This document shows positions 5,389 to 64,000 of a stretch of DNA of 64,000 bases, in pieces (position 1 is the first letter of the stretch; the number at the start of each line of letters is the position of its first letter). The DNA is from Tetracentron sinense. Its lineage: Eukaryota; Streptophyta; Magnoliopsida; Trochodendrales; Trochodendraceae. The DNA is taken from contig CM026564.1 in the NCBI GenBank assembly GCA_015143295.1, positions 13,256,416-13,320,415 on the forward strand, given 5' to 3'. A program made the translations under genes and the position numbers. The notes beneath the pieces are model-generated. The model was not told the DNA's origin. It worked only from the letters and a program-made list of their open reading frames with translations, and ran no database searches.

Positions 5389-5534
5389 AGGGATCAATTG
5401 GTATCTATCAACTGGTTAACTTTTTTGTATTGGGAAAAATTCCAGAGAGGGTGTTTTCAACCGATCGCTCGGTCAAAAACACCGATCGCTCGGTTGGGCA
5501 CCGATCGATCGGTCATAACCACCGATCGCTCGGT
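5389..5534 (+). promoter_or_regulatory. Palindrome array upstream of TATA, arm type ACCGA
   Basis: Five copies of a 14-bp palindrome: a diverged one at 5389-5402, ACCGATCGCTCGGT at 5460-5473 and 5481-5494, the perfect palindrome ACCGATCGATCGGT at 5500-5513, and another copy at 5521-5534. A spacer around GTATTGGGAAAAATTCCAGA lies at about 5428-5447. A TATA box (TTATAAGG) follows at 5595-5602, about 60 bp downstream. CpG is very dense here compared with the surroundings. Confidence 0.75.
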
Positions 5535-6020
5535 CCTTTGTGTTTTTGCAGAAATTTCAGGGTTTTTTTATCTTTTGGCCAACACCCTTTGGCCTTATAA
5601 GGCTTGCTCGAGCCTAAGGGTTCAAAAAGCCTTAGAGATCACATTTTGAGAGAGAGGGAGAGAGGAGGAAAGGGTTTTGAACCCTAGGGCATCATCTTGA
5701 AGATAATCAAGGGTTTTGAAGACCCAAGATCATCCCTTTGGCTTGGAATCCTCAAATCCACCCTCAAGCACGTGTGGGTTCCTTCTCCAAGCTAGGGCAA
5801 CATCTTCCTCGACATTCACAAGGGTTTTCCTCCCTCCTTTTCAAGGTTAGTGCATCCTTCCTAGCTACTATAGTGATAATCTAGATTTTCTTGTGAATAT
5901 GGTGTATTGAATCTTCCCCATTTCTCCATTGTGTTGAAATATGCTAAATCCCTAAAATATAAACAAGATAATATGAATGAATGGTGAAATGTATGGATGG
6001 AGGAGGGGATTGAGGCGATG

Positions 6021-7958
6021 TGTCACGGCCTTAGTTATTTCCCCAACCTTGACCGTGCGGCACTCGTGCTAGAGTCCATCCTAGACGAGTCAGCCTTACC
6101 CTTAAACTAGTAGGAGAGAAGTAGGAACACTCTTTGGAAGAACACTATACTTCTTATTACCCAAGAAGCTTTATACACTTGCTAGGATACCACTCCTTGC
6201 TTGATTACAAATGAGGGGGTCATCCCCTTTATATACATCTCAAGAGAAGGTTCTAGACTCTAGAACATTCCCACCTCCTTTAGAGGATTTCTCTAGAACC
6301 CTTTCTAGAACCCTTATTCTAGACTACTCCACTAAGAATCTTCTAGAGTATCTTCTACACCCTTCTTCCTAAGATTCCTCTAGAATTCCTATTAGTATAT
6401 ATATACCCAAGCTCCCTACCACAAAATTTGGGGTGTGACACTCTCCCCCACCTAATTTCGCGACGCCCTCGTCACGACTTATTCCTGCGCCGCATCCAGC
6501 TCTGTTTCCTTCGCTTTCTCCACTTCAGGGTCTTCCATTCATGCCCCTTCGCCACGTGAAGAATCGTGAACCATTTTGTATCTATTTTGGTCCCTAGCAT
6601 CAATGGAACCATACTTGGTTCCTCCTTCCTCAAGGAGTTAGTATGGGGCATAGGTGCCCTTTTTACCATACCCCCAAACTTAATCTTCAAGTTGAGTTGG
6701 TAGCCGTCCCTCCTGACTACCGGCAAGCTTGCCTTCCCCCTCCATGCTCTGCTGTGCAGTCTCGCTCCCTGGACCACACCATAAATGGGTTTGGCATCCA
6801 TTTTGACCACTTGGATCATCCCCGATCCCTTGGCCATCTTTACTTTTGCTTCCTTTGTCTCTTCCCCTGAGACAAAGTTGTTTTTAGCCTCCATGTCTCC
6901 CTGTGCATGTAAGGCATCCCCATCGAGGTGCTTCACATCGACCCTAAGCCCTTCACCCTCGGGTTTGGTCGCATCCACCTCCTCCGTTGGGTTGAGGAGC
7001 TGTACTGACCCCATGCTCGGCTCCTCCCCCTCATTATCCTCTTCATCGGATTCCTCCTTGCCTTCATCTAACCACTCGCCGCTTTCCAACTTTGCTAGGC
7101 GAGCCTTGTGAACTTCACAATCCCTAGCATTGTGAGTCCCATCGTAGATGAAGCACCAGGAGTTGATCCTTTCTATCATCTTCTTTATTTGCTCCTGGAT
7201 GGTCTCTACCCGTTGCCGTAGAGTAACGAGCATCGCCTCCCTGGTGCTCAGCATCTCCCCTACGGATTGCTCGATTACCCTCTCGAGTCCCGTCATGCTT
7301 AAACCCAGCTCCCTTTTGCGATCTCCCTTGCTCGTCACGACATGCGCACCCCCTGTAAGTCGTGTCCCCATGGCACCTTGAGCATCCCTGGACTCGCTCC
7401 ACCTTGGCTTGTCTGCTCCCAGGTTAAAAACTATCGCTTTGCCTTCCATTCCACCAAGTTGTTCCACCACAATTCCCGTTGTTGTGGCCTCTTCAATCCC
7501 AGACGTTATGACCTTCTCGTAACCCGCTCTGATACCACTTGTCACGGCCTTAGTTATTTCCCCAACCTTGACCGTGCGGCACTCGTGCTAGAGTCCGTCC
7601 TAGACGAGTCAGCCTTACCCTCAAACTAGTAGGAGAGAAGTAAGAACACTCTTTGGAAGAACACTATACTTCTTATTACCCAAGAAGCTTTATACACTTG
7701 CTAGGATACCACTCCTTGCTTGATTACAAATGAGGGGGTCATCCCCTTTATATACATCTCAAGAGAAGGTTCTAGACTCTAGAACATTCCCACCTCCTTT
7801 AGAGGATTTCTCTAAAACTCCTTTCTAGAACCCTTATTCTAGACTACTCCACTAAGAATCTTCTAGAGTATCTTCTACACCCTTCTTCCTAAGATTCCTC
7901 TAGAATTCCTACTAGTATATATATACAAGCTCCCTACCACAAAATTTGGGGTGTGACA
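6021..7958 (-). mobile_element. Short non-autonomous LTR element with a gag-like frame (TR-GAG-like fossil)
   Basis: Two near-identical LTRs of about 420 bp (6021-6440 and 7540-7958; TGTCACGG to GTGTGACA) bound a 1.1-kb interior. On the minus strand the primer site AGTGGTATCAGAGC adjoins the LTR at 7540, and a purine tract (complement of CTCTCCCCCACC, 6441-6452) adjoins the LTR at 6440. The interior is largely one minus-strand reading frame (6472-7545) with a gag-like helical region and a zinc-knuckle-like segment. No protease, integrase or reverse transcriptase is present, matching the TR-GAG class of gag-only elements. The LTRs differ at about six positions plus small indels (about 1.5%), so it is young. 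The flanks share GATG. Confidence 0.8.
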
Positions 7959-8332
7959 GATGGGATGCCATGTTGTGATGTGTTGAATGATGGAAATGGT
8001 GGGAGGGTATTGTACACATAATGAATGCACATGTGATTCTTGATGAAATGCTTGAGAAAGAAATTAAGAGTTTAAAGGACTAAAGAAAATGTAGAATATC
8101 ACTTGCTTGGTAAAATGCATAAATGAGAATACTTGAATTGAATGAAAGTTCGAAAAGCATGATTCATGTAGTTTTCCTAAAATGGCGATTATGAATATAT
8201 TTCTATATGCTTGTTTAAATTCTCATATGAATGTGATAAGAATTGAAATGCTATATGTTACTTCTCATGTCGTATATGTCATCATGTTTTCATAAATGGT
8301 CATGCATAAGCTCGCATGTATATGGAAGAAAT

Positions 8333-8662
8333 GTCAAGGAGGTTGGTAGCCCCGGTTAAGGGTGCTAACCTCTGGCTCATAAGAAAGGTATTAGACTGTC
8401 AAGGAGGTTGGTAGCCCCGTTAAGGATGCTAATCTCTGGCTCATAAGAAAGGTATTGGACTATCAAGGAGGTTGGTAGCTCCGGTTAAGGGTGCTAACCT
8501 CTGGGTCATAAGAAAGGTATTGGAAATGTCAAGGGGGTTGGTAACCCAGGGTTGTGCGGGTGCTAGCCTCTGGCTCATAAGAAAAGACTCAAAAATATTG
8601 TACTATCGAGGAGGTTGGTAGCCCAGGGTGTGCGGGTACTAACCTTTGGCTCATAAGAAATA
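8333..8662 (+). repeat. Tandem repeat inside the gypsy-type LTR
   Basis: Five direct copies of a 64-80 bp unit, each holding GGAGGTTGGTAGCCC, a (GG)TTAAGGGTGCTAACCTCTGG-like hairpin and GGCTCATAAGAAA. The later copies carry a variant middle (GGGTTGTGCGGGTGCT). It lies downstream of the TATA box, so it would be in the transcribed part of the LTR. Confidence 0.8.
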
Positions 8663-8893
8663 TGGAAAGGAAAACTCATACAAACTCATGTGTTTCATAG
8701 ATATGGTTTGGTTTTCATTAGAGTTGTGATTTAATAAATGATGTTGTTTTAAATGATTATGAACTGTATCCTTCTAGTACTTGCATATGATGTTTTGTTC
8801 GTTATTATTATTGTAAGTTAGGAGCTTGACTCGCTGAGTATAAAGTATTTCATGCTCAGCCGTACTTTTATGTAGGTAGGTACACGAGTTCCT

Positions 8894-9025
8894 TTTGACA
8901 TTTGTGTCCCGGGTCCTTGGGTTGAGGAGGACTACGGCGAGGAAGAACCATATGAGGATTCGGTAGTTGAGCCTCAGGCTGAGGCGAGGGACTTAGACCA
9001 TTGGCCCCATGGGGGTGACTACTGA
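8894..9025 (+). other. Conserved acidic peptide-like segment in the gypsy-type LTR
   Basis: One frame reads FDICVPGPWVEEDYGEEE, then an acidic stretch, then LDHWPHGGDY and a stop. Related segments occur in the LTRs at 16081-16194 and about 26179-26285 on the minus strand. No start codon lies just upstream in frame, so any translation would need splicing or read-in. Whether it is truly coding is not known. Confidence 0.45.
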
Positions 9026-9293
9026 AAAAGAGAGAGAGCTACATGTTTTGTATTTTGATAGGTGGACATGTCCACCTTTACATGTCATATTTTATATAAA
9101 CTTGGAATAGTTGTTAGGGTCATTGAAAAGAAAAAGTTGGTTTGTGTTTCCGCCATATTTTAGCTTCCGCACTCTGTATTATATTTCTATTAGAACATGT
9201 TATACCTTGTTCGTTACAGGATGGTTTGTCAGGTTAAGTATAGTCACACCTAAAGCATCCCTTAACTCCTAGGAGGTATTTTGGGGCGCGACA

Positions 9294-17195: not shown

Positions 17196-17326
17196 AGTGG
17201 TCGACCTGTTTTGGGGCCGGTCGACCGGCCCTATGCAATCCCACTGGAAAATTCTCCATACATTTTTCAAGCATCCACAGTTGACCGGTGTTGGGGGCGG
17301 TCGACCAGTTGGCAAGCGGTCGACTG
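17196..17326 (-). promoter_or_regulatory. Palindrome array upstream of TATA, arm type CCGG
   Basis: Copies include GTGGTCGACCTGTT near 17197, the perfect palindrome GCCGGTCGACCGGC (17216-17229), GTTGACCGGTG (about 17279), GCGGTCGACCAGTTG (about 17297) and GCGGTCGACTG (17317-17326). A spacer block resembling the one in other LTRs (minus strand ATGTATGGAGAATTTTCCAG) lies at about 17245-17270. The TATA box is about 85 bp downstream on the minus strand. Confidence 0.7.
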
Positions 17327-18010
17327 TGTTGCCCAGATAATGGACCCTAGAGGGGAGGTGAATAGGGTTTATGGCAATTTGAAATTTTGGCTAAGTGATT
17401 TTTACGGAATTAAAAATTAATCACTAATGCTACCAACAAATAAACAGAAATAAAAAGATAGAGAAAGAGTCAGAGATATCAGACACGCGATATTTAATTG
17501 GGGTTCAACAACTTGCCTACGTCCCCACCTTTAAGCTTCCCGCTTTAAGAATTTTCACGATTTCAATAATCACACTCTTCTTTACAGGTAGAGAGCAAGC
17601 CTTTACAATCCTTTTGCAGGCTCAGGAATAACCTTTTACAATCCTTTTAACGGGCTAAGGAAGAATTTCTTCAAGAGAAACTCTCTCTTGGGAACAAGAA
17701 GACAATCTTCTTCAAAAGGTGCAAGAATCCCTGATTCTTGACTTTCAGCAATTACAAAAATTGAGTAGATTTAAAATCCAAATTGAAAGCTCTTAAGTGA
17801 GCTAGATAAGAGTGAAAACACAATCTTACATTCTCTCAACATGGATTGGAATTGAATGCTCAAAGAGTGAGGGATTTGGATTCAAGATATTCAATGCAAA
17901 AACAGAGTATTGATTACTTGAAGGTGTGAGCAATCAATATGGCCGTTGGGGATAGCATTTAATGCAGACTAGCCATTTAAAACTAACTGTTATATGATTT
18001 TTCCACAGGC

Positions 18011-18105
18011 ACTCGTCGACGAGTGGGAGAAAATCAGGTTGGAGTCGTCAATGAGTGGGAACAGAAGCTATTGCTTCATTTATATTCCTTCACTCGTCGA
18101 TGAGT
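18011..18105 (-). promoter_or_regulatory. Palindrome array in LTR of copy A, arm type ACTCG
   Basis: Perfect palindrome ACTCGTCGACGAGT at 18011-18024, AGTCGTCAATGAGT at 18043-18056 and ACTCGTCGATGAGT at 18092-18105. A mini-hairpin AGAAGCTATTGCTTC lies between the second and third. A TATA-like stretch (complement of GTTATATGATT) lies just downstream on the minus strand at about 17985-17996. Confidence 0.7.
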
Positions 18106-18739
18106 CCCTTACACTCGACACAAGTCTACTGAATTTTTTCAGTAAACTCATCATAATGAGACCAATTTAATGGGAATCATGCTAGGACCCTTAGGTATTC
18201 AAATTAGCATTATTTTAATCATTTTTAGGGCCTTAGAATGATGTCCAAATTATACTAGGTCTCCTAGGGTTTATCTAGGTCAACTTTGAGTAATTTTTTC
18301 CAATGTCTTGAGGACTTTTACAAGGTCCTAAACATTTTTAATTACTACACTAGTCTTCATTGAAAGATGATCTTCATTCTTGATTTGAGGATCTTCATTC
18401 TTGATGGATCTTCATGCTTTGTCTTGAGCTCTTTGAAGCTTTTTCTTTGAAGGACTAGTATTTGAACTTTGACCTTGATAATCTTGAATAGTTGACTTCT
18501 TCAACTCATCATGACTTAAAAGATATCTTAATACTCTGAAATTTCACATTCTAAATAGAAGAATTAGTATCATAAAGTTCATTCCATTATTGTGTTATCA
18601 TCGAAACCATTAAGGGTACTTAGAGTTGTAACCTTGAGGCTAACAATATCCCCCTTTTTGATGATGACATAATAATGTGAATGACTTGGGTTGAGCTCTC
18701 CCTCAGAATATATATTCTTGAAATTTTGAGGATAACTCC

Positions 18740-19569: not shown

Positions 19570-19710
19570 TTTATATATATATAGACCCGAGGGCACTCGT
19601 CGACGAGTAAGAGAAAATCAGGTTGGAGTCGTCGACGAGTGGGAACAGAAGCTATTGCTTCATTTTTGTTCCTTCACTCGTCAACCAGTCCCTTGCACTT
19701 GTTAACGAGT
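19570..19710 (-). promoter_or_regulatory. Internal TATA plus palindrome promoter of copy A's extra frame
   Basis: On the minus strand, palindromes of arm type ACTCG (19697-19710, 19676-19689, 19627-19640 and the perfect 19596-19609) are followed within 15 bp by a TATATATATAAA box (complement of 19571-19583) and then the extra reading frame. The arm type is identical to that of the LTR of the same element. Confidence 0.65.
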
Positions 19711-20336
19711 CTATTGAATTTTTTCAGTAAACTCATCATAATGAGACCAATTTAATGGGAATCATGCTAGGAACCTTAGGCATTTAAATTAACATTATTT
19801 TAATCATTTTTAGGGCCTTAGATTGATGTACAAATTATAAGGGTCTAATCTAGGTCAACTTTGAGCAATTCTTTTCCAATGTCTTGAAGACTTTTACAAT
19901 GTCCTAGACATTTTTAACTAATACACTAGTCTTCATTGAAAGATGATCTTCATTCTTGATTTGAGGAGCTTCATTCTTGATGGATCTTCATGATTTGTCT
20001 TGAGCTCTTTGAAGCTTTTTCTTTGAAGGACTAGTACTTGAACTTTGACCTTGATAGTCTTGAATGGTTGACTTCTTCAATTCATCATGACTTGAAAGAC
20101 AATCTTAATACTCTGAAATTTCACATTCTAAATGGAAGAATTAGTATCATAAAGTTTATTCCATTATTGTGTTATCATCGAAACCATTAAGGGTACTTAG
20201 AGTTATAACCTTGAGGCTAACAGACTGATAGGCCATTTTGATGCCTACCTTGGTTTGGTCTACACTAAAAACACTTAGAATATTTTTCTTTTCTTTCTTG
20301 AAACCCTAAACACACTTAAAATTTTAATTTGATACA

Positions 20337-21232: not shown

Positions 21233-22651
21233 TGTTGGCCAGGTAATGACCCTAAAAGGGGGGTGAATAGGGTCTATGGCAGATTTTAAAAATTTAGACT
21301 CTGAATCTATAATGCGGGATAAAATTAATTTTCAACTAAAGCTTAGTCAGAAATAATGATGAAAGTAAAAGAGAAAAGTTAGAAGAGCAAACACAGAATT
21401 TGTTCACGAGGTTAAGCAATTTCAGCCTATTCCCCGCCTCAAGTTGTTCCAGCTAGAGGATTTACTATGATTCCTTAATCATACAGACTCCTTCATTGGT
21501 GGAGCCTAAAGCTTTACAACCTCTCTTTCAAGTCGAGACACAATCTTTACACACCCTCATTTAGGCCAGGTTGAAGCCTGCAGGAGCATTTCCCTCTCTT
21601 GCTGAAATGAAGCAACAACTTCAATGCAAGAATCCAAGATTCTTGTCTATCCTCAATAAATGATTTGTGGATTAAAAAATCCGAGTTAAAAGCTCCTGAA
21701 ATGAGCTGAATAAGAGTGGAGTACAAACTCTAATGAAATCTCTCAAAATAAATGGAATTGAATAGCTCAAGAAAGATTTTGGGGATTTCTATGTATGTGA
21801 GTGAGTGAGAAATCAATGTAAGTGAATGAGTTGTTGATTGAAGTTATTGCACTGATCAAGAGTTGTATTTAGTTCATAAATGAACTCCTTTTATAGCACA
21901 TGATCCAATAGAGCCGTTGATGAAACATTAAATGCATAATAGGTCGTTGAAAATTAGTTAGCTGATACAACGATTTTTCTGTTTCAGGCTTCAATTCGTC
22001 GACGAAGTGAGGTTACCTTCTTAATTCATTGCCGAATTTTAAGACAGTGAGCACAGGTTTATTTTCTATTTCCAATTCGTCGCCGAATTCAGAATACTCT
22101 ATGAATTCGTCGATGAATTCAGAACAAAAATTTTGAATTCTGTCTTGGATCAGAACAAGATGATGGGAATGAATTCCTTGGTCAATTGGCAATGCTTAAT
22201 CATGATTTTTATGAATTTTAGGGCCTTAGAATAATTTCCAATTTGTGTCTTAGGCTTCTATGGTCAATCTATATAATTTGAGCAATCAACTTACCATCTT
22301 TTGAGGACTTCTTACATAAGTCCTAGATAGTCTCAAAATAAATAATAAAAATATATTTGAAGGCTTCTTGAGAGTTGATCTTGACTGAGCTTGAGTCTTG
22401 TAAATTGGCTTTGGCTTCAAGGGACCCGACTTGGACTATGGGTATAACTTTGAATCTTCAACTTTTTACTTTGAACTGAACTTTATCTTGGATAATTTCC
22501 ATATTTTTTCCATGATTGAAGTGCAAACTTCCTTATAGTCTGAAATATTCAAGCACTTAAACAAATTTATTAGTACCATAATTTTCATTTAATTATTGTG
22601 TTATTATCAAAATTAGTAGGGATACCCAAGGTTGTAACCTTGAGGCTAACA
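21233..22651 (-). repeat. 3' LTR of element B
   Basis: TG...CA ends; 1419 bp. It starts TGTTGGCCAGGTAATGACCC and carries the GGGGGGTGAATAGGG block, which also sits near the same end of the LTRs of copies A and C. It contains a palindrome array (21993-22119) and a TATA box (complement of TTTTATAG, 21889-21896). Its outer end GAGGCTAACA equals that of copy A, so A and B are related subfamilies. Confidence 0.75.
21993..22119 (-). promoter_or_regulatory. Palindrome array in LTR of element B, arm type AATTCG
   Basis: AATTCGTCGACGAA at 21993-22006, AATTCATTGCCGAATT at 22023-22038, AATTCGTCGCCGAATT at 22074-22089 and AATTCGTCGATGAATT at 22104-22119. The TATA box is about 95 bp downstream on the minus strand. 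Confidence 0.7.
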
Positions 22652-23983
22652 ATCTCCCTATTTTTTATCATGACATAATAATATAAGGAAATAGGATTGA
22701 GCTCCCCCTCAAAATATATTTTTCATAAAGCTTTGAGGTTAGCTCCCCCTAAACATATGCATTTATATAAATAGAACCAAGTTTTTACTTAGATGCATAT
22801 TTTAGACATTTCAAGAGACATATCATCATTTTTTAATACCAAGAGAAGTTCCACAAAGGTAATTATTTTCTCTTTATTTTTCATCACAAGTGATCAAATT
22901 AAGACAGTCAAGAGAAGTTCTATGTTATTAAGTTAAGAAGATAAAATTTGAATAAAGAGAAGTTCCATAAACATGATAAATTCATTAATTTTATTCACTG
23001 CAAAATTAAAAAGATGGATTCAAAGAAATGGAATTTCATTCAATGTCAGAGAAAAAAGTACTAAAAGTATTTTCAATTTCAGTTCATTACATATATTCCT
23101 TCTCCCCCTATGGCATCAAAACAAAAGAAGAACATCTTCAATTTCAATTCATTTTCAATTTCAGAAAAAAATGAATTACAACTCATCTTGTGTTTTGCTT
23201 CTTCCTAAGCTCTGCCATCTTTTCTAAAAGATCCTTGGTTGGACCTTCATCTCCATCATTCTTGTCTTCTTCTTCTTCCTTAGCATGAGGGTTATCACTC
23301 TCATTTTCATCTTCATCAACATCATCATCTTCATCTTCACTACTTCAAATAACAGTAGGGGAAGGAGGAATGGAATGAATTTTAGAAGACTTTGGAAGTA
23401 TAGAAGAGCAGGTTGCTCCCTTGACCACTTGAAAAGATTGCTTCTTGACGTCGAAGACTTCTATAGAAAGCTGAGTCACTTGGGAGGCCATCTGGTGAAT
23501 GATTGGAGCTTGGTTCTTGAGGAGTGAAGACATTTGGTCAATGACAAGACTTTGATGTCTTAAATGCTTCTCAGATCCTTCAATTTTTCCCTTCATCATG
23601 GTTACTAGGTCATTGAGTTAAAGCCTTTGCTCCATGGCATCCACTGCCTTTCTTTCTATGAGAGATAGGATAGAATCTATCCTATTTTTAGTGACTTCTC
23701 CTGCAATTTCTATCTCATCCAATCTGGGCTCTATGGATTCAAAAATTTTCTTCACTTCCCCTGGGATGCTGTCCATCCTAGCCTGAAGGCTCTGAAGGCA
23801 CTCTCTGGTCTCTAACTGAAGGGTAGTCAAGTTGGCTCTACTCTCTGCCATGAAGGAGAGCATAGAAGCTCTCATCTCATTCTGAAATCTCATCTGGCTG
23901 AGTCTCATCTTCAGCTGGAACTGCTCCATGCTGGTAGCTATGGAGGCTATCTGTCCTGCCATAAAGGTCATCTGCTCATCAGA

Positions 23984-27643: not shown

Positions 27644-28880
27644 GGCGTCGAATATTTTTTTTTAACTCTTTTGCTACTTTTTGCTTGTCTCCCTTTTCAT
27701 GCAATCAAACCTCAAAAATGACCTAAATTAAGTGTTTTATTTGAGTTTTAAAATCAACATTTTATATCATTAAGTTTGCAAGCTTAAACACATAAAAATT
27801 AATCATATGTTTTCCATAGCATTTAATAAATTTCACAGGTATTAAGAATAATAGATTCGAGACTCTATAGTTTGGGAGTCCATTCCTTCTGGCTATCATT
27901 CCAAATATAACCCATCCTTTGGATGGTTGTCTTGCTATAAATGGTAGAATCATCAGGGTTAACAAAGTCAGTGTGGGAAGAAAGAGAGACATAAAAGTGT
28001 TTGAAGATTTTGGTCAAGGCTTGACTAAATGGAAGGCACCCTAACTTCCTCTTATATGCATCATCCATGCAATGGACAATGATATAAGATAGGTCAATAG
28101 GTGTGGAAGTGAGGATACACCACATGAGAAATACATCAAAGAAAATTAGGTATTCCCTACCACCAGCTCTAGGGACTAAGTTATCGGTGATGATGTGGTG
28201 GATAAGTCTAGAGGTCGGAGTGAGCTCTTTGACTTTAAGTTGGAATGGAGTGGTGAAGTCTTAGTTTATGCACATGAGTTTTAGTGCTTCAACCACATCA
28301 AATCCTTCATGTTTGGTCCACTGACCATCCCCAAAAGATTGAAGGGGATATTTTGGAATTCTAAGGATGTTATGCAATTGATCCAAATGAAAAGAAATTT
28401 TCTTTCCTAGAACATATAAGGAAATTATTTGAGTGGATTAGTTGAAATGAAAGTAAGTGTAAAAGATTCTAACTAATTCAGGAAACATGGTTTCGTTAGA
28501 AATTACGAATGAATTCCACTTACGGCAGAAAAGAGGGTTTTAATTTGACCTAGGCCGTAGGCTTCTAGGTTGACAAAGTTAACTATCTTACCGTACAGAG
28601 GAGTATGAGGCAAGAATTTCTCCTTGAATAGCTTTTCGTACTTGGGGGATTTGAACTTGGAAGGAGCTGAAATCATGGCCACCTCTTTACCTTTATCTGT
28701 GCAAGCTTTCTTCAATGGGGGCTCCACAGATGCATTCTTCATTCGTGGCTGCATCTTCAGAGATTAGGGTTTGATTTGGTGAGTAATGGAAGGGATTTGA
28801 GTGAGGATTCAATGAAACAGTGGAGTGGAGGGAAAACTAGGTTTGAGAAGTGATTTGAAAAAAATTGGATTTAGGGGTTT

Positions 28881-29109
28881 TAATTTATACCTAAGATGCA
28901 ACTCGTCGCCGAAATGGGCTTGAGCCCTGAATTCGTCGCCAAATTGATGTCAGGAAACTTACTGTTTTTGGTTCTTGATTGACTTCGTTGTCGAAATTGA
29001 ATGACCCATTCAATTTCGTCGCCAAATTGGGTACAGGAAGCTTATTGTTTCCTATCCACCCAAAATTTGTTGCCGAATTCCAAATCCATATATGAATTCG
29101 TCGCTGAAT
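28881..29109 (-). promoter_or_regulatory. Internal TATA plus palindrome promoter of element B's extra frame
   Basis: Six copies of the AATTCG-arm palindrome with TCGC or related centres: 29094-29109, 29064-29079, 29012-29028, 28982-28997, 28930-28945 and 28900-28915. A TATA box (complement of TAATTTATACC, 28881-28890) follows on the minus strand, and the extra frame starts about 125 bp further on. A mini-hairpin AGGAAGCTTATTGTTTCCT lies at about 29038-29056. Arms match this element's own LTR. Confidence 0.7.
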
Positions 29110-34496: not shown

Positions 34497-34501
34497 GTGG
34501 T

Positions 34502-36059: not shown

Positions 36060-37323
36060 CCATATGCACTGCTGCATCGAGTGATCCAAGTCTTCCACGG
36101 ATCTCTGTGGTGAACTCCTGGTGGGATGAAATATGCGTTGAGAGATCCATCTGCATCCCTCTCATCATTCTGGCTAGATCATCAATCGTGGCCGGAGGTG
36201 GATGAGAGGATCCTGTACCAAAATCAGCTTCCTCCTCAATATCTCGAACTGAAGCATGAGAGAAACTCTAAGCGATGGTCTTTTTGTTGATTGGACCTTT
36301 CGGATTACGGGTAGGAACTCCAGGAGGAGCAATAATCCCTTGAGAACCAAGGAGTTTAGTAATCAGGGATCCAAACGGAAGAGCTCCAACCACAGTTTGA
36401 GTTTGATGGGCTTGAATCATCAAATCAATTATGTGTGCTGCAAGGTCAATATCTTGTCCACGAAGGAGACTGAATAAAAATCGAGCTCTATCTTCCCTAA
36501 GGTCTGCAGTATGAACCTTTGGGTGGATATTGGCACTCATTACTAGGTTTACAAGTCTGGCATCCCTAGTGAGTTTTGTTACTTCTATTAAGGAACCAAC
36601 CCAACGTGTAGGAGCACCACAAAGAAAGGTGACTACATTGTTCATAGATTCTTTATCCTCATCTTTCTTGTATTTATAAGGATAATAGGCATCTGGAACT
36701 CGAGGACAACCAAGAAATTTAGCAATGACATTTGGATTTATCAAAACTGATTGTTCTAAAGATCAAGATTTAAAAGACCAGGTTTTAAAATTGATTTCAG
36801 AGAAATTTGAGTAAAATTCCTGGACTAACTGAATAGGAGCAGGACCGGATAAAGTGAGAAGACCTTCCCAGTTACGATCGGTAATGAGCTTAGAAAGGTA
36901 ATAATCACCAAAATCTTAAAATCTAATGCTCCTTTCAACCATAACACTCTTTTTACTAAAATACTCACTATAAAGCTGAGGAGCACTAGGGCTAATGAAG
37001 GGACCCAATAGAACATTTGAAGATAAACTAGCTTTTCCCTTTTGTTTCCGGGTTTTATCTGCCAAAGACTTTTGGCGATTTTCAGTAGTAGAATCCACCA
37101 TTCTACGGATTGGTCGATCCCCTATTGAAATCCCATGTCCTATTGGAGTGAAAGAGTATGGCTCATTGTGTTCCTCTTCCTCTAGAGGGTCCTCTTGGTT
37201 ATTGAGGACCAATCTCTGGCGTTTAGAGACACCGGACATGAGGAATGCAAGAATAACTAAGGAGTATGAGAAAATCATGATGAATTTTTGATGCCCTAGA
37301 TGTGAAAAGTAAACCAAAATCAA
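36060..37323 (-). other. Extra frame of element C, downstream of pol
   Basis: A coding region in the sense of the element between pol and the 3' LTR. A likely first ATG near 37239 opens MSGVSKRQRL; further blocks are FISPSAPQLYSEYF, FLGCPRVPDAYYPY, TRWVGSLIEVTKLTRDARLV and LARMMRGMQMDL-like sequence. The whole resembles the plant family usually annotated as 'putative plant transposon protein', common beside retroelements, function unknown. It has one or two breaks. It is preceded by its own TATA and palindromes (37469-37526), so separate transcription is likely. This is not a recognised envelope: no signal peptide or membrane segment is evident. Confidence 0.6.
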
Positions 37324-37468: not shown

Positions 37469-37526
37469 TTTTATAACCCTGTTCACGAAAGACCGATCGA
37501 TCGGTCATTAACACCGAGCGATCGGT
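37469..37526 (-). promoter_or_regulatory. Internal TATA plus palindrome promoter of element C's extra frame
   Basis: On the minus strand, ACCGAGCGATCGGT-type (37513-37526) and perfect ACCGATCGATCGGT (37492-37505) palindromes are followed at once by GGGTTATAAAACC (complement of about 37467-37479), and the extra frame's ATG lies about 230 bp downstream. The arms equal those of the LTR of the same element. Confidence 0.75.
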
Positions 37527-38672: not shown

Positions 38673-41600
38673 TCACTCAACTTCGCACAAACCAATGGAT
38701 CTCCTAAGGAATTCAAACCTAAGGGAATCTAAGGGTTTTGTGAGAATGTCTGCATATTGTTTCTTTGTTTGGACATACTCAATACACACAACATTTTGCT
38801 CAACTAAATCACGAATGAAGTGATGCCTAATGTCAATGTGTTTTGTGCGAGAATGTTGAACGAGATTTTTGGAAATATTGATAGCACTTGAATTATCACA
38901 ATACACAGTCATAGTGCCTTGTTCAATCCCGTAATCATGCAACATCTGCTTCATCCACAGAAGTTGAGTACAACAACTGCCAGTTGCTATGTACTCAGCT
39001 TCGGCAGTGGACAATGAAATTGAATTTTGCTTTTTGCTAAGCCAAGCAACTAAGCAGTTTCCAATATAGAAACATCCTCCGGAGGTGCTCTTCCTATCAT
39101 CAGCATTTTCGGCCCAGTCGGCATCGGAATATCCAACTATTGTGGCATTGGTATCAAAAGAATACCAGAGGCCAAATGATGGAGTTCCACTTACATATCT
39201 AATGATACGCTTGACTGCAAGTAAGTGAGACTCTTTTGGGCTTGCTTGATAGCGAGCACATGCTCCAACACTAAAGGCAATGTCTGGTCTAGTAGCAGTT
39301 AGGTAGAGCAAACTACCAATCATGCTTCTGTAAGTAGTTTGATCAACATCCTTGCCTGAAGTATCTTTATTAAGTTTTGTTGTAGAACTCATAGGAGTCC
39401 TAGCATGCTTAGCAGAACTCATACCAAATTTCTTCACCAGATTTTTAGCATATTTGATTTGAGATACTGAGATCCCAGAATCAATTTGCTTGATCTGAAG
39501 ACCAAGGAAGAAATTCAGCTCACCTACCATGCTCATTTCAAATTCATTCTTCATTTGTTCAGCAAATGATTGAGCATGTAAGTCTAATGTGGAACCAAAC
39601 ATAATGTCATCAACATAGATCTGGGCAATGACAATATCACCTTTCACATTTTTTATAAAAAGGGTTCTCTCTACTCCCCCTCTTGAAAATCCATTTTCCA
39701 AGAGATAAGTAGTCAACCTCTCATACCAAGCTCTTGGAGCTTGCTTTAAACCATAGAGGGCCCTTTTTAATTGATAAACTTGATCAAGGTGATGTGGATC
39801 TTCAAACCCTTTTGGTTGTTCCACATAGACTTCTTCCTGTAGAATGCCATTCAAAAAGGCACTCTTAACATCTATTTGAAACAACTTGAATTTCATATGG
39901 CAAGCCACAGCTAGAAGAATTCTGATTGATTCTAGCCTGGCCACAGGAGCAAAGGTCTCATCGAAGTCAATACCTTCAATTTGGGTGTATCCTTGTGCAA
40001 CTAACCTAGCCTTATAGTACATTTTTCATCAGTTTTGTTCTTGAAAATCCATTTGGTACCTATCACATTTGTATTGTTAGGCCTAGGTACTAAATATCAA
40101 ACATCATTCCTAGTAAACTGAAGTAACTCATCTTGCATTGCATTGATCCAATTATCATCTGCAAGGGCTTCAGCTACATTCTTAGGTTCAAAAGATGAAG
40201 TATAGCAAATGTAGCTAACTTCATTTTCAATTTGTTTCCTTGTTCTCACTCCACTTTCAAGATCACCAATTATATCTGTGGAGTTGTGAGGACTTATGAC
40301 CCTAGGATGTGTGAGTTTTAATGGAGATGATTGCTTAGTAATAAGTGGAGTTGAAGAAGTTTCAACATTTTCATTTCCAGCATTATCATCATCCTCAAGT
40401 TGCACATTTTCAACACTAGAGTCATCCACAACTACATTTATGGACTCCATAATCGTAGAGGTTCTCAAGTTGTACACTCGATAAGCTCTACTGTTGGTGG
40501 AATATCCAAGAAATATCCCTTCATCATTCCGGGATTCAAATTTGCCCAGTTGCTCTCTATCCTTAAGGATATAGCATTTACTTCCGAATTCTCGAAAGTA
40601 CTTGACACTGGGTTTCTTGTTATTCCACAACTCATATGGGGTTTTCCTTATTCCAGGTCTTACAAAAACTCTATTAACTATATAGCAAGCAGTGTTAACT
40701 GCCTCAGCCCAGAAATGAGAAGCTAGATTGTTGCTATGAAGCATAACTCTAGCCATCTCTTGGAGAACCCTGTTCTTCCTCTCTACTACACCATTCTCTG
40801 AGGTGTAATAGGTGCAGAAAATTCATGTTTGATACCCGACTCATCACAAAAGTCGTTGTACTTAGAGTTTTCAAACTCCTTTCTATGATCACTTCGAATT
40901 CGAGTGATTGGGCATCTTTTCTCATTTTGAATTTTCAAGCAAATACTTTTGAAATTGTCAAAAGCATCGGATTTCTCTCTTATAAATGCCACCCATGACA
41001 TTCTTGAGAAATCATCAACCATGACTAGGATGTATCGCTTTCCACCTAGGCTTTCAGTTCTTGTAGGACCCATAAGATCCATATGAATTAATTCCAGTGG
41101 ATATGAAGTAGCAATACTTGAAGTCTTCTTATGTGGGGTTCTAATTTGTTTACCAATTTGGCATGGCCCACACACAGCAGTAGAAGGCTTTCCTAGTTTG
41201 GGAACACCTCTTACAAGCTCTTGCTTAGAGATTTTACATAGGTCTTTGAAGTTCATGTGACCTAGTCTTCGGTGCCACAAATCAACCTCCTCAATTTTAG
41301 TCTTATAACAGACATTTGAGGGATTAGGACTGGGAATTAAGCCGTAGCAATTGTCAGTGGTTCTCAACCCTTCTAGAACACACTTACCTTTACCATTAAT
41401 GACTAAGCATTTATTTTGGGTAAAGTGCACAACATGGTTATCATCACATAGTTGACTTATGCTAATTAAATTAGCTTTCAGTCCTTCAACAAACAAGGCA
41501 TCTTTCAATTTTGGTATGCCTGGTGAATCGATGATACCCTTCCCTTTGACTAAAGACTTGCTTCTATCACCAAATGTAACAGTCCCATCTGGACAGTCCT

Positions 41601-41720
41601 TAAATTGAGTAAATAAGGACTTGTTACCTGTCATATGCCGAGAACACCCACTGTCGAAGTACCACATTTCTGTGTTTTGGGCTTTCAAGGCAGTGTGAAT
41701 GACGAAGCACTTAAGGTCAT
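38673..41720 (-). other. pol region of element C (protease, integrase, RT, RNase H)
   Basis: In order on the minus strand: retropepsin-like protease with DSGCSRHMTG (about 41640), a pre-integrase zinc region with LWHRRLGHMNFKDL (about 41250), an integrase core with LIHMDLMGPTR and MVDDFSRMSWVAF (about 40980-41090) and its C-terminal part, reverse transcriptase with DVKSAFLNG and YVDDIMFGS (about 39590-39880), and RNase H with [14 protein letters not shown] and [13 protein letters not shown], ending ADILTKPL (about 38725). Protease-integrase-RT-RNase H order defines copia. These enzymes copied the element RNA in virus-like particles and inserted the DNA. The region has a few breaks. Confidence 0.9.
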
Positions 41721-43983
41721 CCTTTCTTACATACACAGTCTTTAAACTTTGTTTAGATCTTTGATCATTAAACTGTATATTAGAAACCTTTTTCCTTTTT
41801 GTCCTCCTTGACCTTTTCCTATTTTGTTCAGTTCTAGCTTTTTGATTAGTCAAATTCTTTCCTATTGAATAATCATTTGGAATAAATTGACCAGTTCTTG
41901 TCATAGAGATTTGAGCAATTCTATTAATATCTTCGCTCAATATTCTCGACTTTTCAGCCAGAACCTGAATCTGCCTTTGAAGAGTCCCTTGACTTTGATT
42001 TTGGTTCCATGAACCATTTCGGGGAGCTCTCCTAAAAGCATTACAATTTGGTCGAATGTGACCTCTCACACCACAAAAGTGACACGTGGGTATGAATCTT
42101 GGTAGAGGAGGAGGATTTCTTCTAAAAGGAATTTGATTCCTCATAGCATTCACTCTAGGAGCTGTATTTCTAGGCTTTACAAAATTTGTATAAGCCTCAG
42201 TACTTGATGTAGAAGGTAGATTCACTTTAGGATCAGAATGTATTGGCTCAAACACTACACTAGCCATTGTACCAACAGCTAAAGGACCAGCTGGTGTGTC
42301 AGCATGTCCTATCGCAGATCTACTCGAATTTGACCCATATTTTCTAACTAATTCATCTAGGCAGCTAGTGTTACCAAACATTCTTACTTCTTTTTCAAGA
42401 GTATAGACCTTCTGAATCAAGTCAGTCTTGTCTTTAAGGGTAATTTGATGTTCTTTTTCAAGAAATTTCACCTTATCAACAAGAGAGTCTTTAAAAGTTT
42501 CCAGCTCCATTTGCAGAGTTCTTAACTCTTCAATTTCTTTCATGGAAGTGTCTCTTTCAACTTCTAATTTTCTGACCACATTAGTCAATGAGACATTCTC
42601 TTCCAAAAGACATTGAACTTTCATAACAAATGCTTCTTTTTCATTTTCCAACTGACTAACTAGAGCACTCTTCTCTTCTGCTACTAGTTTACAAGTATCT
42701 CTTTCATTTTGAATGATTTTGAGTTTTTTGCTCAAAGAAATTTTTGTTTTAGTCAGCTTCAAACTTTCAGCATACAACTTATCATAAGTTGTTTTCAAAT
42801 CTTCATCACTTTCAGAGTCAGTTTGACTCTTCTGTATGTCATCACTAGACTCAGTATGAACACTCTCATCACTTCTATCCTTTTCATCAACCGCAGAGGT
42901 AGTCTCAAGAATCCCAGAAAGGGAAACAATGAAAGCCGTATGATTTCCAGTATCTTCACTTGAAGAGGAACTGTCCGATTCTTCATTCTCGGAATCACTG
43001 TCATCTCAACAGGCATTCATCACCTTGCCCTTACTCTTCTTCTTGTTAGGGCAGTTAGGTGAAATATGACCGAAGCCATGACATTCATAACATTGAACAC
43101 CTTGGGATTTCTTGTCGCCACTCTTGGAATTTTTCTTGTTTTCCCAGGGCTTAGACTTTGACTTCTCAAAAGATTTTCCTCCCTGTTTGGGATTGAACCT
43201 CTTTTTCGTTCTAAAAAATTTTCGAAATTTTTTAACGAAGAGAGCCATTTCTTCCTCATTCATATCTCCATCCCTGTCATCCTCATCCAAAGATTCCTTG
43301 ATAGATTTCAAGGCTAAAGATTTGTTCTTCTTGGATGGACGGAGATTGAGTTCATAGGTTTGGAGTGAACCAACCAATTCCTCAATCTTCAGAGAGTCAA
43401 CATTTTTACTCTCTTCGATTACAGTGACTTTGGGTTGAAATCTCTCAGGGAGAGATCTAAGGACTTTTCTAACTATTTTGGACTCAGATATTTTTTCACC
43501 TAAATTGAAACTAGCGTTGACAATGTCACTAAGTTTTGCATAGAATTCATCAAAAGTGTCATTGTCATCCATGTTTAAATGTTCAAATTTGGTGGTTAAC
43601 ATTTGGAGTTTTGAGATTTTAACAGTGGTAGTACCCTCATGGGTAATTTCAAGAATGTTCCAAGCCTCCTTTGCTGTTTCACATGAAGAAATTCGTCTGA
43701 ATTCCTCAGTAGTGACTGCAGTAAAGATAGCATTGAGACCTTTAGTGTTCCATCCACTTGACTCAAGCTCTTCTCTGGTCCATTCATTAGAATATTTGAC
43801 GACAGTCAAATCACCTACAGTTTTTATGGGCGTAGTCCACCCATTCTGTATAGACATCCAAATTCTCTCGTCAATTGATTTGAGAAAGGCTCTCATTCTA
43901 GCTTTCCAGTATGCATAATTATACCCATCAAAAAGTGGGGGACGAGAGACGGATCCACCTTCTCTTAGAGTACTCATGATCAC
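41721..43983 (-). other. gag region of element C
   Basis: It starts near 43977 (MSTLREGGSVSRPP), about 50 bp after the primer site. Blocks: DUF4219/UBN2-type core (FDGYNYAYWKARMRAFL, LRSLPERFQPKVTVIEES), a zinc knuckle CYECHGFGHISPNC (about 43050-43090), a long coiled coil (about 42380-42790), and a second zinc knuckle CHFCGVRGHIRPNC (about 42040-42085). Gag forms the particle and binds the RNA. The long coiled-coil extension and second knuckle fit the Sirevirus type. There are one or two breaks. Confidence 0.85.
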
Positions 43984-44025
43984 GGATAATACAGGATCAC
44001 ACTTAAGGGATTAGCCTTATCAGTG

Positions 44026-44042: not shown

Positions 44043-44044
44043 AT

Positions 44045-45264
44045 TGAAATTTATCCAGATCAATGATCTCTAAGACCTAGAGGGGGGGTGAATAGGTCTA
44101 TCTAATAATTTCTAACCAATTTTAATTTTTCAATTAATATGTTTAGAAATCAATGAACAATTCACTCAGACAATCCACACAAATCAAACACAGAAGATTT
44201 TTACGTGGAAAACCCTAACGGGAAAAAAACCACGGGACCTCGTCCAGCAACAAACTTCACTATGAAAAGATTTCAAGTACAAGACAAGACCTTACCAAAA
44301 CAGAAACGACGTTCCTAGGTATAGACTCTTACTCTTGATTTCCACGAACCAGCAGGTTCGATCTCCGCCGTAGCAGCTTCGGTTCCACACCGACCAAATC
44401 TTCTCAAGCTACTTCAAAACCACGATCACACACGATCGATCTCCTTCCACGAAGGCTTCGGATCAAACACCGGACACACACACAAGGTGTAGGGTTGTGA
44501 ATCAATTTAGGAAGTTTCAAACCCTAGAGGGATCTCATATAGATCTGAGATCACACAATGCAAGATCAAAGGTTTAGATCTATACTTGCATTCTCTAGGA
44601 TCAAAGAAAGAGGAGGGATCAACAAAGATCTAAAAGAACAAGAGGAAAAACCCTAGAGAAGTGTCTCAGACCTCTACTCTTTCAAAAATAAACAAAGATG
44701 CGAATTAGGTCTCCAAAAAGTTGTTTATATAGGGTTTAAAAAAAGAATCCAGAAAAATAAAAATTCTTTTTACGGGGACCGATCGAGCGGTGCTCATTAC
44801 TGATCGCTCGGTCCAAAACGGATCGCTCGGTGCTCATAACCGATCGTTCGGTTAAAAATCACCTCTGGAAAAATACCCCATACAAATTTTTTGTCCAGTC
44901 GATAGCCACCGATCGCTCGGTAGGCCACCGATCGATCGGTCTCAACACCGAGCGATCGGTTGAGACAGAATTTTTTCCAAACCATTTTTCTTTTCATGTT
45001 TATTTGATTCAACTAAGATCAAACAACTTTGTTAGGTTTAAAACTATCCTCCTAGGTATGTTTAGAGTTATCTAAGTCAAATCCAACCTAGGTAGGGGTC
45101 TCTAAGTCCATTACCTTTCTAGATCCAGAGTAGGAGCTTTTTTTTCACTTTCTTCAATCTTCTTTATGCTTTAGCTCTTCTCTTCTGACAAGTTGAACAC
45201 GACTCGACTCACATGACCTATCTAATGATCACGGAATTTGCCAACACCTACTTAGGGATTTACA
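44045..45264 (-). repeat. 5' LTR of element C
   Basis: 1220 bp, about 98% like the copy at 34502-35723. It carries the same palindrome array at 44778-44960 and a TATA box (complement of TTTATATA, 44724-44731). Many of the differences between the two LTRs are C/T or G/A, as expected for methylated CpG decay. Confidence 0.9.
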
Positions 45265-62170: not shown

Positions 62171-62429
62171 GGTACACCTTCGAAGCAGGTCCACGGGCAC
62201 GAGGCCCAACGAGTCCAATTATTCAAGCAAGACTTGGAATAATTGAGGGATTTCTTACGGTTAGAAAACCTAACCTGTATTAAACGCTATCTGTGGTCCC
62301 TCTTTGACTAGGTCTAGAGAAGCGGGTCTGTTAAGAGCCGGGGTTCCTCCGTGACTGATAATCGGGAGAGTTAGGATGACATTGGGCCTATAGGCCCAGG
62401 GTTGATTGGGGTCTATGGACCCAGTAATG

Positions 62430-62800
62430 TATTGAGTTTACGAACTCAATAATGTTACCTTGAGGGAGCATTAACCTGTGTCGGCAGGTATGCACCCAAT
62501 AGAGGCTGTGATGACCTATGATGGTTGCTTTGAGGGATGATGTTATGTAGGGGCAGGTACATCCCAACAGAGGTTGGATTAAGCGTTGTATTGTCAGAGG
62601 TGTTGTGCCTGATAGGATTACGAACTCAATAATGTTACCTTGAGGGAGCATTGACCTATGTCGGCAGGTATGCACCCAACAGAGGCTGTGATGACCTATG
62701 ATGGTTGCTTTGAGGGATGATGTTATGCAGGGGCAGGTACATCCCAACAGAGGTTGGATTAAGCGTTGTATTGTCAAAGGTGTTGTGCCTGATAGGATTT
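62430..62800 (+). repeat. About 180-bp direct duplication
   Basis: The block from TACGAACTCAATAATGTTAC through GGTTGGATTAAGCGTTGTATTG occurs at about 62436-62600 and 62619-62780 with only a few changes. It is a recent duplication inside older tandem repeats. Confidence 0.8.
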
Positions 62801-63205
62801 GATGTCAGAGGCGTTGTGCCTGACAGGATTTGATGTCAGAGGTGTTTTACTTGGCGTGGGTACTGTCAGAAGTGTTTTGCCTAACGGGGTTATATTGTCA
62901 GGTGTGTTCCTGTTAGTCAGGTGTTTCTTGATAGTCAGAGGTGCATCCCTGACATGTCAGATGTGGTATCCTGACATGTTGGATGAGTTTCCTGGCTATC
63001 AGATGTGTATCCTGGCTATCAGATGTGTATCCTGGTTATCAAATGTGTTGCCTGATAAGGGTGTTATGTCAGAGGTGTTATGCCTGTCAAAGTGATATGT
63101 TAGATGTTTTCTGGTATACAGGTGTTTCCTGGTAGTCAGAGGTGCGTCTTTGGCATGTCAGATGTGTTATCCTAGCATGTTGGATGGGTTTCCTGGTTAT
63201 CCTGG
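62780..63205 (+). repeat. TGTCAGAGGTGTTxTGCCTGA minisatellite
   Basis: About fifteen short diverged units such as GTCAGAGGTGTTGTGCCTGA and TATCAGATGTGTATCCTGGC. Each holds a TCAG...CTGA inverted pair. Confidence 0.65.
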
Positions 63206-64000
63206 TGTAGAACCCCAGATCTCAATCGTATAGCTGGTGAATAGTGCCGGTGAAAGGTGGTTAAAGGCTTAAAGCATTATGTGTTGCATGGTTTGGTTTT
63301 AAGGAAAAAGGGGGTTTTGCCCAAGTTTCGTGTGGTGTGGGTAACAAGAAGAGTATAATACTCTAGGTTTAATGGTTGGGTTTTTAGGGGTTAGAAACTA
63401 AGAGTAGAAATACTCTTAAGTGTTAGAAATGGGAAAAACAGGCAAAAACTGGTCGACCGATTTCGTTACGGGTTGACCGAACAGCTACCGGTCGACTGAA
63501 TGCCTATCGGTCAACCGATAGTCCCTACCGGTCGACCTGTTCCCCAAAATTTTGTATGGGGAATTTTTCAAGAGAGGGAGTTTTTGACCCGTCGACCGGT
63601 AGGATTTTGTTACCGGTCAACTGAACAGCTACTGGTCGACCGAGTGTCCTCACCAGTCGACCGAATGCCTATCGGTTGACCGATAGTCTCTACCGGTTTA
63701 CCAGTTCCCCAAAATTTTGTATGGGGAATTTTTCCAGAGAGGGAATTTTTGACCGATTGACCGGTGCTCCCTACCGGTCAACCGCTCCGTCGCATTTTGC
63801 CTTATTTGGTGGGTATACTGGTCTTTGACCACCCATTATTGGCCTATATAAGCCCAAATTTCGTGGGGAGGGTTTCACAAACCCTCTAAGACAAGAATTT
63901 GGGGATTTTGGAAGTAGAAGGAAGGGGAGAGCTAGGGTTTTGGTTCCAAGACCAAGGGTGGTGCTTGGATTGCCTGTCAAAGTGGGATTTTACTTGTCCA
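63206..64000 (+). mobile_element. Start of a Ty3/gypsy-type LTR, cut by the window end (fossil)
   Basis: TGTAGAACCCCAGATC at 63206 resembles the start of the LTR at 5167 (TGTAGTGCCCCGAAAC). In + order: U3, palindrome array (63448-63786), TATA box (CTATATAAG, 63844-63852), leader with TCTAAGACAAGAATTTGGGG. It runs past 64000. Confidence 0.55.
63448..63786 (+). promoter_or_regulatory. Large palindrome array upstream of TATA, arm type ACCGG
   Basis: At least a dozen copies around the consensus ACCGGTCGACCGGT, for example at 63448-63461, 63487-63500, 63506-63519, 63527-63540, 63587-63600, 63631-63644, 63671-63684, 63752-63765 and 63773-63786. The spacer GTATGGGGAATTTTTCCAGA is present at about 63717-63738, and a close variant at about 63554-63575. 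The TATA box is about 60 bp beyond the last copy. Confidence 0.8.

What the first reader, a model, noticed from the sequence alone, without database searches (positions are those of the whole stretch)
5389..63786. A shared promoter code: palindromes with TCGA centre and family-specific arms in copia and gypsy LTRs
At least ten places carry 14-16 bp palindromes built as arm + TCGA (or TCGC/TCAA) + inverted arm. Arms differ by family: ACCGA (5389-5534, 35236-35419, 37492-37526, 44778-44960), ACTCG (18011-18105, 19596-19710), AATTCG (21993-22119, 28900-29109), CCGG (17196-17326, 63448-63786) and GGCGA (27630-27643, 61719-61753). In nearly all of them a TATA box on the same strand lies within about 15-100 bp. 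Palindrome-rich promoter regions are known for Sirevirus LTRs; a common design shared with gypsy-type LTRs is not something I know to be described. The unrelated arms with a constant centre suggest a fixed spacing for a dimeric protein, or a structure that matters more than the sequence.
Basis: partly seen in the sequence, partly recalled or inferred. Interest (0 to 1): 0.9.

Follow-up and report, generated by a model that had tools for sequence, protein, structure and literature searches.

The report
Promoter module shared by unrelated retrotransposons
Two unrelated kinds of plant jumping gene carry the same block of short mirror-image DNA sites, spaced like turns of the double helix just before their start switch, which suggests that one took its control region from the other.

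Summary
The palindromes are real and non-random. In the window's own 1.16-Gb genome ACCGATCGATCGGT occurs 30,033 times (read backwards: 3). TATA-like sites follow 19 of 24 arrays tested (16.8% of random positions; many arrays are related copies). In Sireviruses (Ty1/copia) such 'repeated motifs' (RMs) are known, in LTRs and before the env-like gene; B, E, F and G fit that. What goes beyond: (1) the same arrays lie in Ty3/gypsy LTRs (A; by LTR homology D; a relative with two LTRs has gypsy gag, protease and RT domains and a weak integrase match); (2) a ~185-bp module (three RMs, a 57-bp core region, four RMs) is homologous between gypsy-type and Sirevirus LTRs (68-77% identity, E to 1e-36) while their flanks do not match, so this part of the 'code' is common descent after exchange, not convergence; (3) sites fall on a ~10-bp lattice, as expected for dimers on one DNA face; (4) arms of an array change together by one or two symmetric bases (ACCGA/ACCGG, ACTCG/ATTCG). 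Within the ACCGA family the arms, not the centre, are best conserved. Bound protein, promoter function and direction of exchange are inferred.

The parts
5167..9293 (+). A: gypsy-lineage solo LTR (2189 bp without the insert at 6021-7958), TGTAGTGCCCC...GGGGCGCGACA, flanks ATTTT/ATTTA
   Evidence: LTR homology to a gypsy element at G000:C3 outside the module
5379..5534 (+). A: five RMs of ACCGA type (first degenerate) around core 5424-5451
5596..5601 (+). A: TATA-like site, 62 bp after last RM
17196..17309 (-). C: three RMs of ACCGG type in an LTR fragment cut by Sirevirus LTR E; TATA at about 17104-17109
17327..18645 (-). E: Sirevirus LTR, RMs of ACTCG type at 18011-18105; PPT-like AGGGGGATATTG at 18644-18655
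19592..20222 (-). E2: 92% copy of the E U3 with RMs 19595-19710 and TATATATATA 12 bp further, apparently in the internal (linker) part
21233..22652 (-). F: Sirevirus-type LTR (homologous to E), RMs of ATTCG type at 21994-22118, TATAAAA 99 bp downstream
27868..28260 (-). G: env-like fragment (Transposase_32, 40 bits, below the 45-bit cut-off) downstream of the G RM array
28901..29109 (-). G: linker RM array (ATTCG type) with TATAAATTA 12 bp further
34501..35723 (-). B 3' LTR (Sirevirus) with module 35235-35419; PPT 35722-35733
36268..36759 (-). B env-like ORF piece (Transposase_32)
37492..37526 (-). B: two RMs upstream of the env-like region, TATAAAA 17 bp further; conserved in L023 (2722-2756)
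38676..44007 (-). B: ORF pieces for copia gag, integrase and reverse transcriptase
44044..45264 (-). B 5' LTR (Sirevirus), 98% identical to the 3' LTR; PBS at 44031-44042
44778..44960 (-). B: shared module, [3 RM]-core-[4 RM]; TATATAAA 47 bp further (about 44726-44731)
63206..64000 (+). D: gypsy-lineage solo LTR running to extended coordinate 65436 (locus L028), target-site repeat CCTGG
63448..63786 (+). D: eleven RM-like sites, mostly ACCGG type and many degenerate, around two copies of the core (63551-63578, 63716-63743); TATA 59 bp further

Best explanation
The palindromes are arrays of binding sites for a dimeric DNA-binding protein (two inverted 5-bp half-sites, 4-bp centre), placed about every 20 bp (or 30 and 50 bp) so that the dimers line up on one face of the helix just upstream of the TATA box in U3. 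They act as an upstream promoter or enhancer, in Sireviruses also as part of a promoter for the env-like gene. A ~185-bp piece of this promoter (RMs + core + RMs) has passed between a Ty3/gypsy lineage and a Ty1/copia Sirevirus lineage of the same host, more likely gypsy to Sirevirus, by recombination or template switching. Within lineages the sites of an array change arms together, as expected if the protein's specificity shifts or the array is re-homogenised. SHOWN: arrays, position, phasing, homology of the module across superfamilies, concerted arm differences. INFERRED: protein binding, promoter function, direction and mechanism of exchange, cause of arm turnover.
For: Gypsy identity: an A-type element at G000:C3 has the module in its LTR (L026), TGGTATCAGAGC after the LTR end, and gag, RVP_2 protease, RVT_1/RNaseH and a weak Integrase_H2C2 match in gypsy order. 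With the module masked, that LTR piece matches A, L001, L003, L007, L017, both L019 LTRs, L023 (minus), L029, L031 and L033, but not the B, E or F LTRs (E <= 1e-3). D's R/U5 is homologous to A and to that element. Sirevirus identity of B; L023:4832-6047 is 88.7% identical to the B LTR over 1,225 aligned positions and has PPT-like and integrase-signal matches. Module homology: all 24 gypsy-type/Sirevirus pairs (8 x 3) align over 140-209 bp at 68-77%, E 1e-13 to 1e-36, and the alignments end within about 17 bp of the module edges or inside it; with RMs masked, 6 of 8 gypsy-type rows beat the best of 100 (mononucleotide) shuffles, 29.2 bits, top 52.7. Phasing: 34 spacings from nine arrays, R = 0.80 at 10.1 bp, 0 of 5000 jittered sets reach it; control palindromes R = 0.04-0.07 (n = 51). 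Arm switch in one U3: L033 is 85% identical to L026 over 194 bp before the array, yet has ACCGG instead of ACCGA arms. Arrays of >=4 RMs: 15 in window and L005-L027, 0 in each of 3 shuffled sets. TATA 19 of 24. L032 carries a CCGG module joined directly to U3 sequence plus ACCGA module of the other type. CpG O/E in arrays 0.84-1.92 against 0.45 elsewhere.
Against: No binding, expression or methylation data. With RMs masked, A (24.7 bits) and L026 (21.1 bits at the core), the latter the only module whose own element has tested gypsy domains, do not beat the shuffles; L026 is also the least similar to the Sirevirus modules (68-70%). Short off-diagonal flank matches (up to 18 bp) also appear there. 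The integrase match of the C3 element is below Pfam's cut-off. Phased spacing could partly be inherited from tandem duplication of a ~20-bp unit (the 30/50-bp spacings of E, F, G argue against this as the whole story; with the 15 distinct spacings R is 0.71, p about 6e-4 at 10.2 bp before any search over periods). The module tree is poorly supported (2 of 15 inner branches starred) and unrooted, so direction rests on parsimony: the core is in A- and D-type gypsy LTRs but was not found in E, F or G. RMs do decay: in the B LTR pair 4 of 22 substitutions fall in RMs, 98 of 1221 bp. Most arrays are related copies, so counts are not independent.
Confidence: 0.68

Rival explanations
1. Known Sirevirus RMs only: the gypsy-like LTRs A and D are really Sireviruses or fragments, and nothing new is present.
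For: RMs before TATA and before env are described for Sireviruses (PMC2829016); B is a Sirevirus and E, F, G look like ones.
Against: An A-type element has Ty3/gypsy gag, protease and RT domains; its LTR outside the module matches A and ten other LTR copies in nine loci but not B, E or F; A and D LTRs are ~2.2 kb with other termini.
Confidence: 0.06
2. Convergence: host factors favour CpG-rich palindromes before TATA, and copia and gypsy LTRs evolved them separately.
For: The ACTCG/ATTCG arrays of E, F, G use another core and another spacing; Sirevirus RMs of other plants have still other arms (Table 3 of PMC2829016).
Against: For ACCGA the non-RM core and the spacing are homologous between superfamilies in 6 of 8 gypsy-type rows. 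Convergence may still hold between the ACCGA/ACCGG group and the ACTCG/ATTCG group.
Confidence: 0.13
3. RNA or DNA structure is what counts: hairpins in U3 transcripts feed siRNA-directed silencing, or serve RNA dimerisation or packaging; arms drift freely as long as pairing is kept.
For: Module RNA folds far better than shuffles (z -6.7, 0 of 200); in maize an excess of small RNAs maps to Sirevirus palindrome clusters (passages of PMC10760457 and PMC5311732).
Against: Arms are strongly conserved in sequence across copies and superfamilies (0.896), sites keep a ~10-bp lattice, and position is tied to TATA. Silencing may be a cost rather than the purpose.
Confidence: 0.13

Closest known systems
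Repeated motifs (RMs) of Sireviruses (Bousios et al. 2010, PMC2829016; passages, section 9 and part 1 of 2 of section 15 seen)
   Same: Palindromic, family-specific, multi-copy, CpG-rich, upstream of TATA in U3 and upstream of the env-like gene; the Vitis RM CGGTCGACCG is contained in the ACCGG-type RM here.
   Different: They report RMs as absent from 'classic' elements of their Ty1/copia set and report none in gypsy in the parts I read; here gypsy LTRs carry them, with a homologous module. ACCGA, ACTCG and ATTCG arms lack the CGG-CCG order; a helical lattice and concerted arm changes are not described in the parts I read.
[quoted passage not shown] 2016; paper not held, known from passages of PMC10760457 and PMC5311732)
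   Same: Palindrome clusters in the regulatory part of the LTR, described as rapidly evolving.
   Different: Motif CACCGGACNNNGTCCGGTG; PMC10760457 also finds it as the top motif of maize Helitron structured regions, so sharing beyond Sireviruses has a precedent.
VANC target motifs in VANDAL transposons (PMC5735166, 12 of 23 passages; PMC10398659, abstract and outline)
   Same: Dense short motifs in non-coding repeats, differing between related TE families and changing together; VANC6 also acts on unrelated AT9TSD1 that carries its motif.
   Different: Motifs recognised by a TE-encoded protein (the word palindrome does not occur in PMC5735166); no such protein is known or tested here.
Template-switched complex LTR retrotransposons (PMC1950507, search listing and start of abstract only)
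   Same: Composite LTR structures between elements.
   Different: Here only a ~185-bp promoter module is shared across the Ty1/Ty3 divide.

Membership tests
Sirevirus (element B) | PPT AGGGGGAG followed by AT/TG attachment site | tested here: met
   35722-35733 AGGGGGAGATTG
Sirevirus (element B) | PBS containing TATCAGAGC next to the 5' LTR | tested here: met
   44031-44039, minus strand
Sirevirus (element B) | copia gag/IN/RT plus env-like gene with RMs upstream | tested here: met
   RMs 37492-37526
Sirevirus RM (arrays here) | Palindromic, repeated, upstream of TATA | tested here: met
   TATA in 19 of 24
Sirevirus RM (arrays here) | CGG-CCG core signature | tested here: not met
   Met by the ACCGG type only; ACCGA reads CCG-CGG, ACTCG/ATTCG have neither (Tnd-1 is a known exception)
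Sirevirus RM (element B) | At least eight RM copies per element (3' LTR plus linker) | tested here: met
   Seven in the 3' LTR plus two (and one weak) in the linker; not tested for E, F, G, whose arrays hold 3-5 sites each
Sirevirus RM (arrays here) | Restricted to Sireviruses | tested here: not met
   A gypsy element and LTRs homologous to it carry them
Ty3/gypsy (A-type LTRs) | Ty3-type gag, protease, RT and integrase in gypsy order in a copy with two LTRs | tested here: met
   G000:C3 element, 4 of 6 ORF pieces hit; integrase match below cut-off
Ty3/gypsy (D) | Own internal domains | not testable with these tools
   D is a solo LTR; assignment by R/U5 homology to A and the C3 element; its first 795 bp do not match the L026 LTR piece
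VANC-like anti-silencing target | Motifs bound by a TE-encoded protein that removes DNA methylation | not testable with these tools
   No methylation or binding data

The most novel reading that the evidence does not exclude
LTR promoters of one plant genome form a shared, fast-changing recognition code: elements of both superfamilies compete for one or a few dimeric regulators through phased palindrome arrays, swap whole promoter modules across the Ty1/Ty3 divide, and shift half-sites in concert to escape silencing or follow a changing activator.
Probability: 0.35. Interest if true: 0.87.

Novelty: new variant of a known kind. Interest (0 to 1): 0.72.

Why it matters
Retrotransposon promoters are usually treated as lineage property. 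A homologous promoter module in both Ty1/copia and Ty3/gypsy LTRs, built on a motif present about 30,000 times in one genome, would show that regulatory parts move between superfamilies and would explain how an element gains a working promoter at once. The phased sites give a direct handle (DNA pull-down, DAP-seq) on the unknown protein behind the Sirevirus RMs, a question left open in the 2010 paper.

Tried and rejected
Rejected: arms as unrelated (they differ by one or two symmetric bases); TCGA as the fixed element (centre varies more than arms). Env-like protein as the common RM-binding factor: not pursued; the homologue search of the 36268-36759 piece gave nothing at E <= 0.001. Core and RM patterns in viral and prokaryote contigs: 0 matches in each of five scans. 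My first identity comparison of module and flanks was useless because its gap scheme gave shuffled sequence 0.72 identity; replaced. Direction of exchange by tree: unresolved. Count of TGCGA, copies of B-type Sireviruses, copies of the core and of D: not completed; for D I fetched the LTR's own continuation instead. No count was asked for ATTCG, GGCGA, TACGA.
Full report
WHAT IS THERE. The window lies at G000:C14:13256416-13320415 of a 1.16-Gb assembly of a plant, probably a eudicot (most named matches among the 120 listed for the copia RT are eudicots such as Prunus, Acer, Malus, Camellia). It is full of LTR elements. B (34501-45264, minus) is a Sirevirus: LTRs 98% identical, copia gag, integrase and RT domains and an env-like Transposase_32 piece, PBS and the Sirevirus PPT. 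E (LTR 17327-18645; PPT-like site), F (LTR 21233-22652; homologous to E) and G (RT piece 30106-30732, env-like piece 27868-28260 just below cut-off) look like Sireviruses on the minus strand. A (5167-9293) and D (63206 to extended 65436) are solo LTRs of another kind, with TGTAG..CCCC starts and GGGGCGCGACA ends and 5-bp flanking repeats (A 4 of 5 matching, D CCTGG).

IS IT MORE THAN CHANCE. Yes. Palindromes with TCGA centre: 20 against 2.9 in shuffles; RM-like sites 63 against 3.3. Genome-wide, ACCGATCGATCGGT occurs 30,033 times, ACTCGTCGACGAGT 2,111 and ACCGGTCGACCGGT 506; the same letters read backwards, themselves palindromes, occur 3, 1 and 2 times. Of twenty 10-kb stretches at fixed positions, 4 hold arrays of at least four RMs, seven arrays in all (L007, L017, three in L019, two in L023); with six in the window and one each in L025 and L026 the total is 15, against 0 in each of three shuffled sets.

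ANATOMY. A site is arm(5)-centre(4)-inverted arm(5). Sites stand 19-21 bp apart in the ACCGA/ACCGG arrays, with much the same order of spacings in different loci and a start-to-start gap of about 60-71 bp that holds a core (TTTGTATGGGGAATTTTTCCAGAGAGGG-like); in E, F and G they stand 30-32 and 49-51 bp apart, with a different sequence between. Thirty-four spacings from nine arrays share a period of 10.1 bp (R 0.80; 0 of 5000 jittered sets; control palindromes 0.04-0.07). These arrays are partly homologous; with the 15 distinct values only, R is 0.71. A TATA-like site follows within 110 bp in 19 of 24 arrays against 16.8% of random positions, and precedes in 1 of 24. In env-linker arrays the distance is 12-17 bp (Benv, E2, G, L023env), in LTRs 46-99 bp where found within 110.

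ARMS. Sites have arms ACCGA, ACCGG, ACTCG, ATTCG, GGCGA, and outside the window TGCGA (L025), TACGA (L019), GACGA-like (L007) and mixtures with AGGGG (L029, L031). E and F are homologous LTRs (67-77% in three blocks) whose RMs at matching places differ by one symmetric base per half-site. L033 and the gypsy LTR L026 are 85% identical over 194 bp before the array, but one has ACCGG and the other ACCGA arms. So arms change together along an array. Of perfect-arm 14-mers in the DNA held (L002 and L004 left out), TCGA or TCGC/GCGA centres occur in 63 of 93 with CpG-bearing arms and 2 of 879 others.

GYPSY CARRIERS. A's first 219 bp matched 40 scored places of 5,063 candidates. A pair on C3, 9.9 kb apart, bounds an element of which 4 of 6 submitted ORF pieces hit Pfam: Retrotrans_gag/Ty3_capsid, RVP_2, RVT_1 with RNaseH, and Integrase_H2C2 (the last below cut-off); of 4 pieces from a second A-type element on C20, 2 hit (Retrotrans_gag, Integrase_H2C2). 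In C3 the order is LTR, PBS, gag, protease, RT, integrase, and the LTR has the module (L026). With the module masked, that LTR piece matches A, L001, L003, L007, L017, both L019 LTRs, L023 (minus), L029, L031 and L033, and not the B, E or F LTRs nor the part of D inside the window; D is tied to the lineage by its R/U5.

SHARED MODULE. Gypsy-type and Sirevirus modules align over 140-209 bp at 68-77% identity in all 24 pairs, E 1e-13 to 1e-36, ending within about 17 bp of the module edges or inside; only short off-diagonal matches (up to 18 bp) appear in the flanks. With RMs masked, the core gives up to 52.7 bits; 6 of 8 gypsy-type rows beat the best of 100 shuffles (29.2), A (24.7) and L026 (21.1) do not. 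That spacer sequence and order are shared besides the palindromes is not what convergence predicts. Parsimony favours gypsy to Sirevirus: the core is in A- and D-type gypsy LTRs and was not found in E, F, G. The tree keeps the three Sirevirus modules together (92/89, not starred) but does not resolve direction. L032 shows a U3 in which a CCGG module runs directly into the U3 and ACCGA module of another LTR, the kind of recombinant that such exchange would make.

HOW IT MOST LIKELY WORKS. Dimers bound on one face of DNA before the TATA box drive or license transcription; the same site pair with its own TATA box lies before the env-like region in B and in L023, which supports the internal env promoter that Bousios et al. 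favoured but could not identify (section 15). Elements that share the motif can use the same factor; concerted arm change lets a lineage leave or follow it. Binding and function are inferred.

COMPARISON. Bousios et al. 2010 describe RMs for 13 Sireviruses and call them Sirevirus-specific, within a Ty1/copia set (passages, section 9, part of section 15). I found no report of such arrays in gypsy LTRs or of a module shared across superfamilies in the searches (listings, open-licence papers only; Bousios et al. 2016 was not held). VANC targets are the best functional analogy for concerted motif change and for a motif shared by an unrelated element. The lineage name Tekay/Del that the A and D LTR ends recall to me comes from memory, not from a call.

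VERDICT. On re-checking, the masked-core support fell from 7 to 6 of 8 rows and the integrase match proved weak, while strengthened the gypsy assignment; the odds of the main reading are left as they were.

Noticed in passing
window 6021-7958: A 1.94-kb element with ~420-bp terminal repeats (98% identical), Met-type PBS on the minus strand and one open 371-aa gag-like ORF without Pfam match: looks like a non-autonomous gag-only (TR-GAG-like, name recalled) element inserted in LTR A.
   Followed up: partly
window 19592-20222: A second copy of the U3 of Sirevirus E, with RMs and TATA, lies apparently in its linker rather than in an LTR, as if U3 had been copied to serve the env-like gene.
   Followed up: partly
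L032 (G000:C3:1599700-1600600): One LTR U3 in which a CCGG-type module is joined directly to an ACCGA-type U3 and module: a recombinant promoter.
   Followed up: partly
L029 and L031: Arrays mixing ACCGG and AGGGG half-sites, including hybrid sites with one arm of each, as if caught in transition.
   Followed up: no
window 51265-51600: hAT-like RNase-H fold fragment on the minus strand (Pfam E 1.5e-11).
   Followed up: no
window 61874-63200: Minisatellite-rich LTR-like region (82, 180, 31, 20-bp units) into which solo LTR D is inserted with a CCTGG duplication.
   Followed up: partly
protein P0116: A copia protein is filed under a bacterium (Solirubrobacter sp. CPCC 204708), presumably plant contamination of that record.
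   Followed up: no
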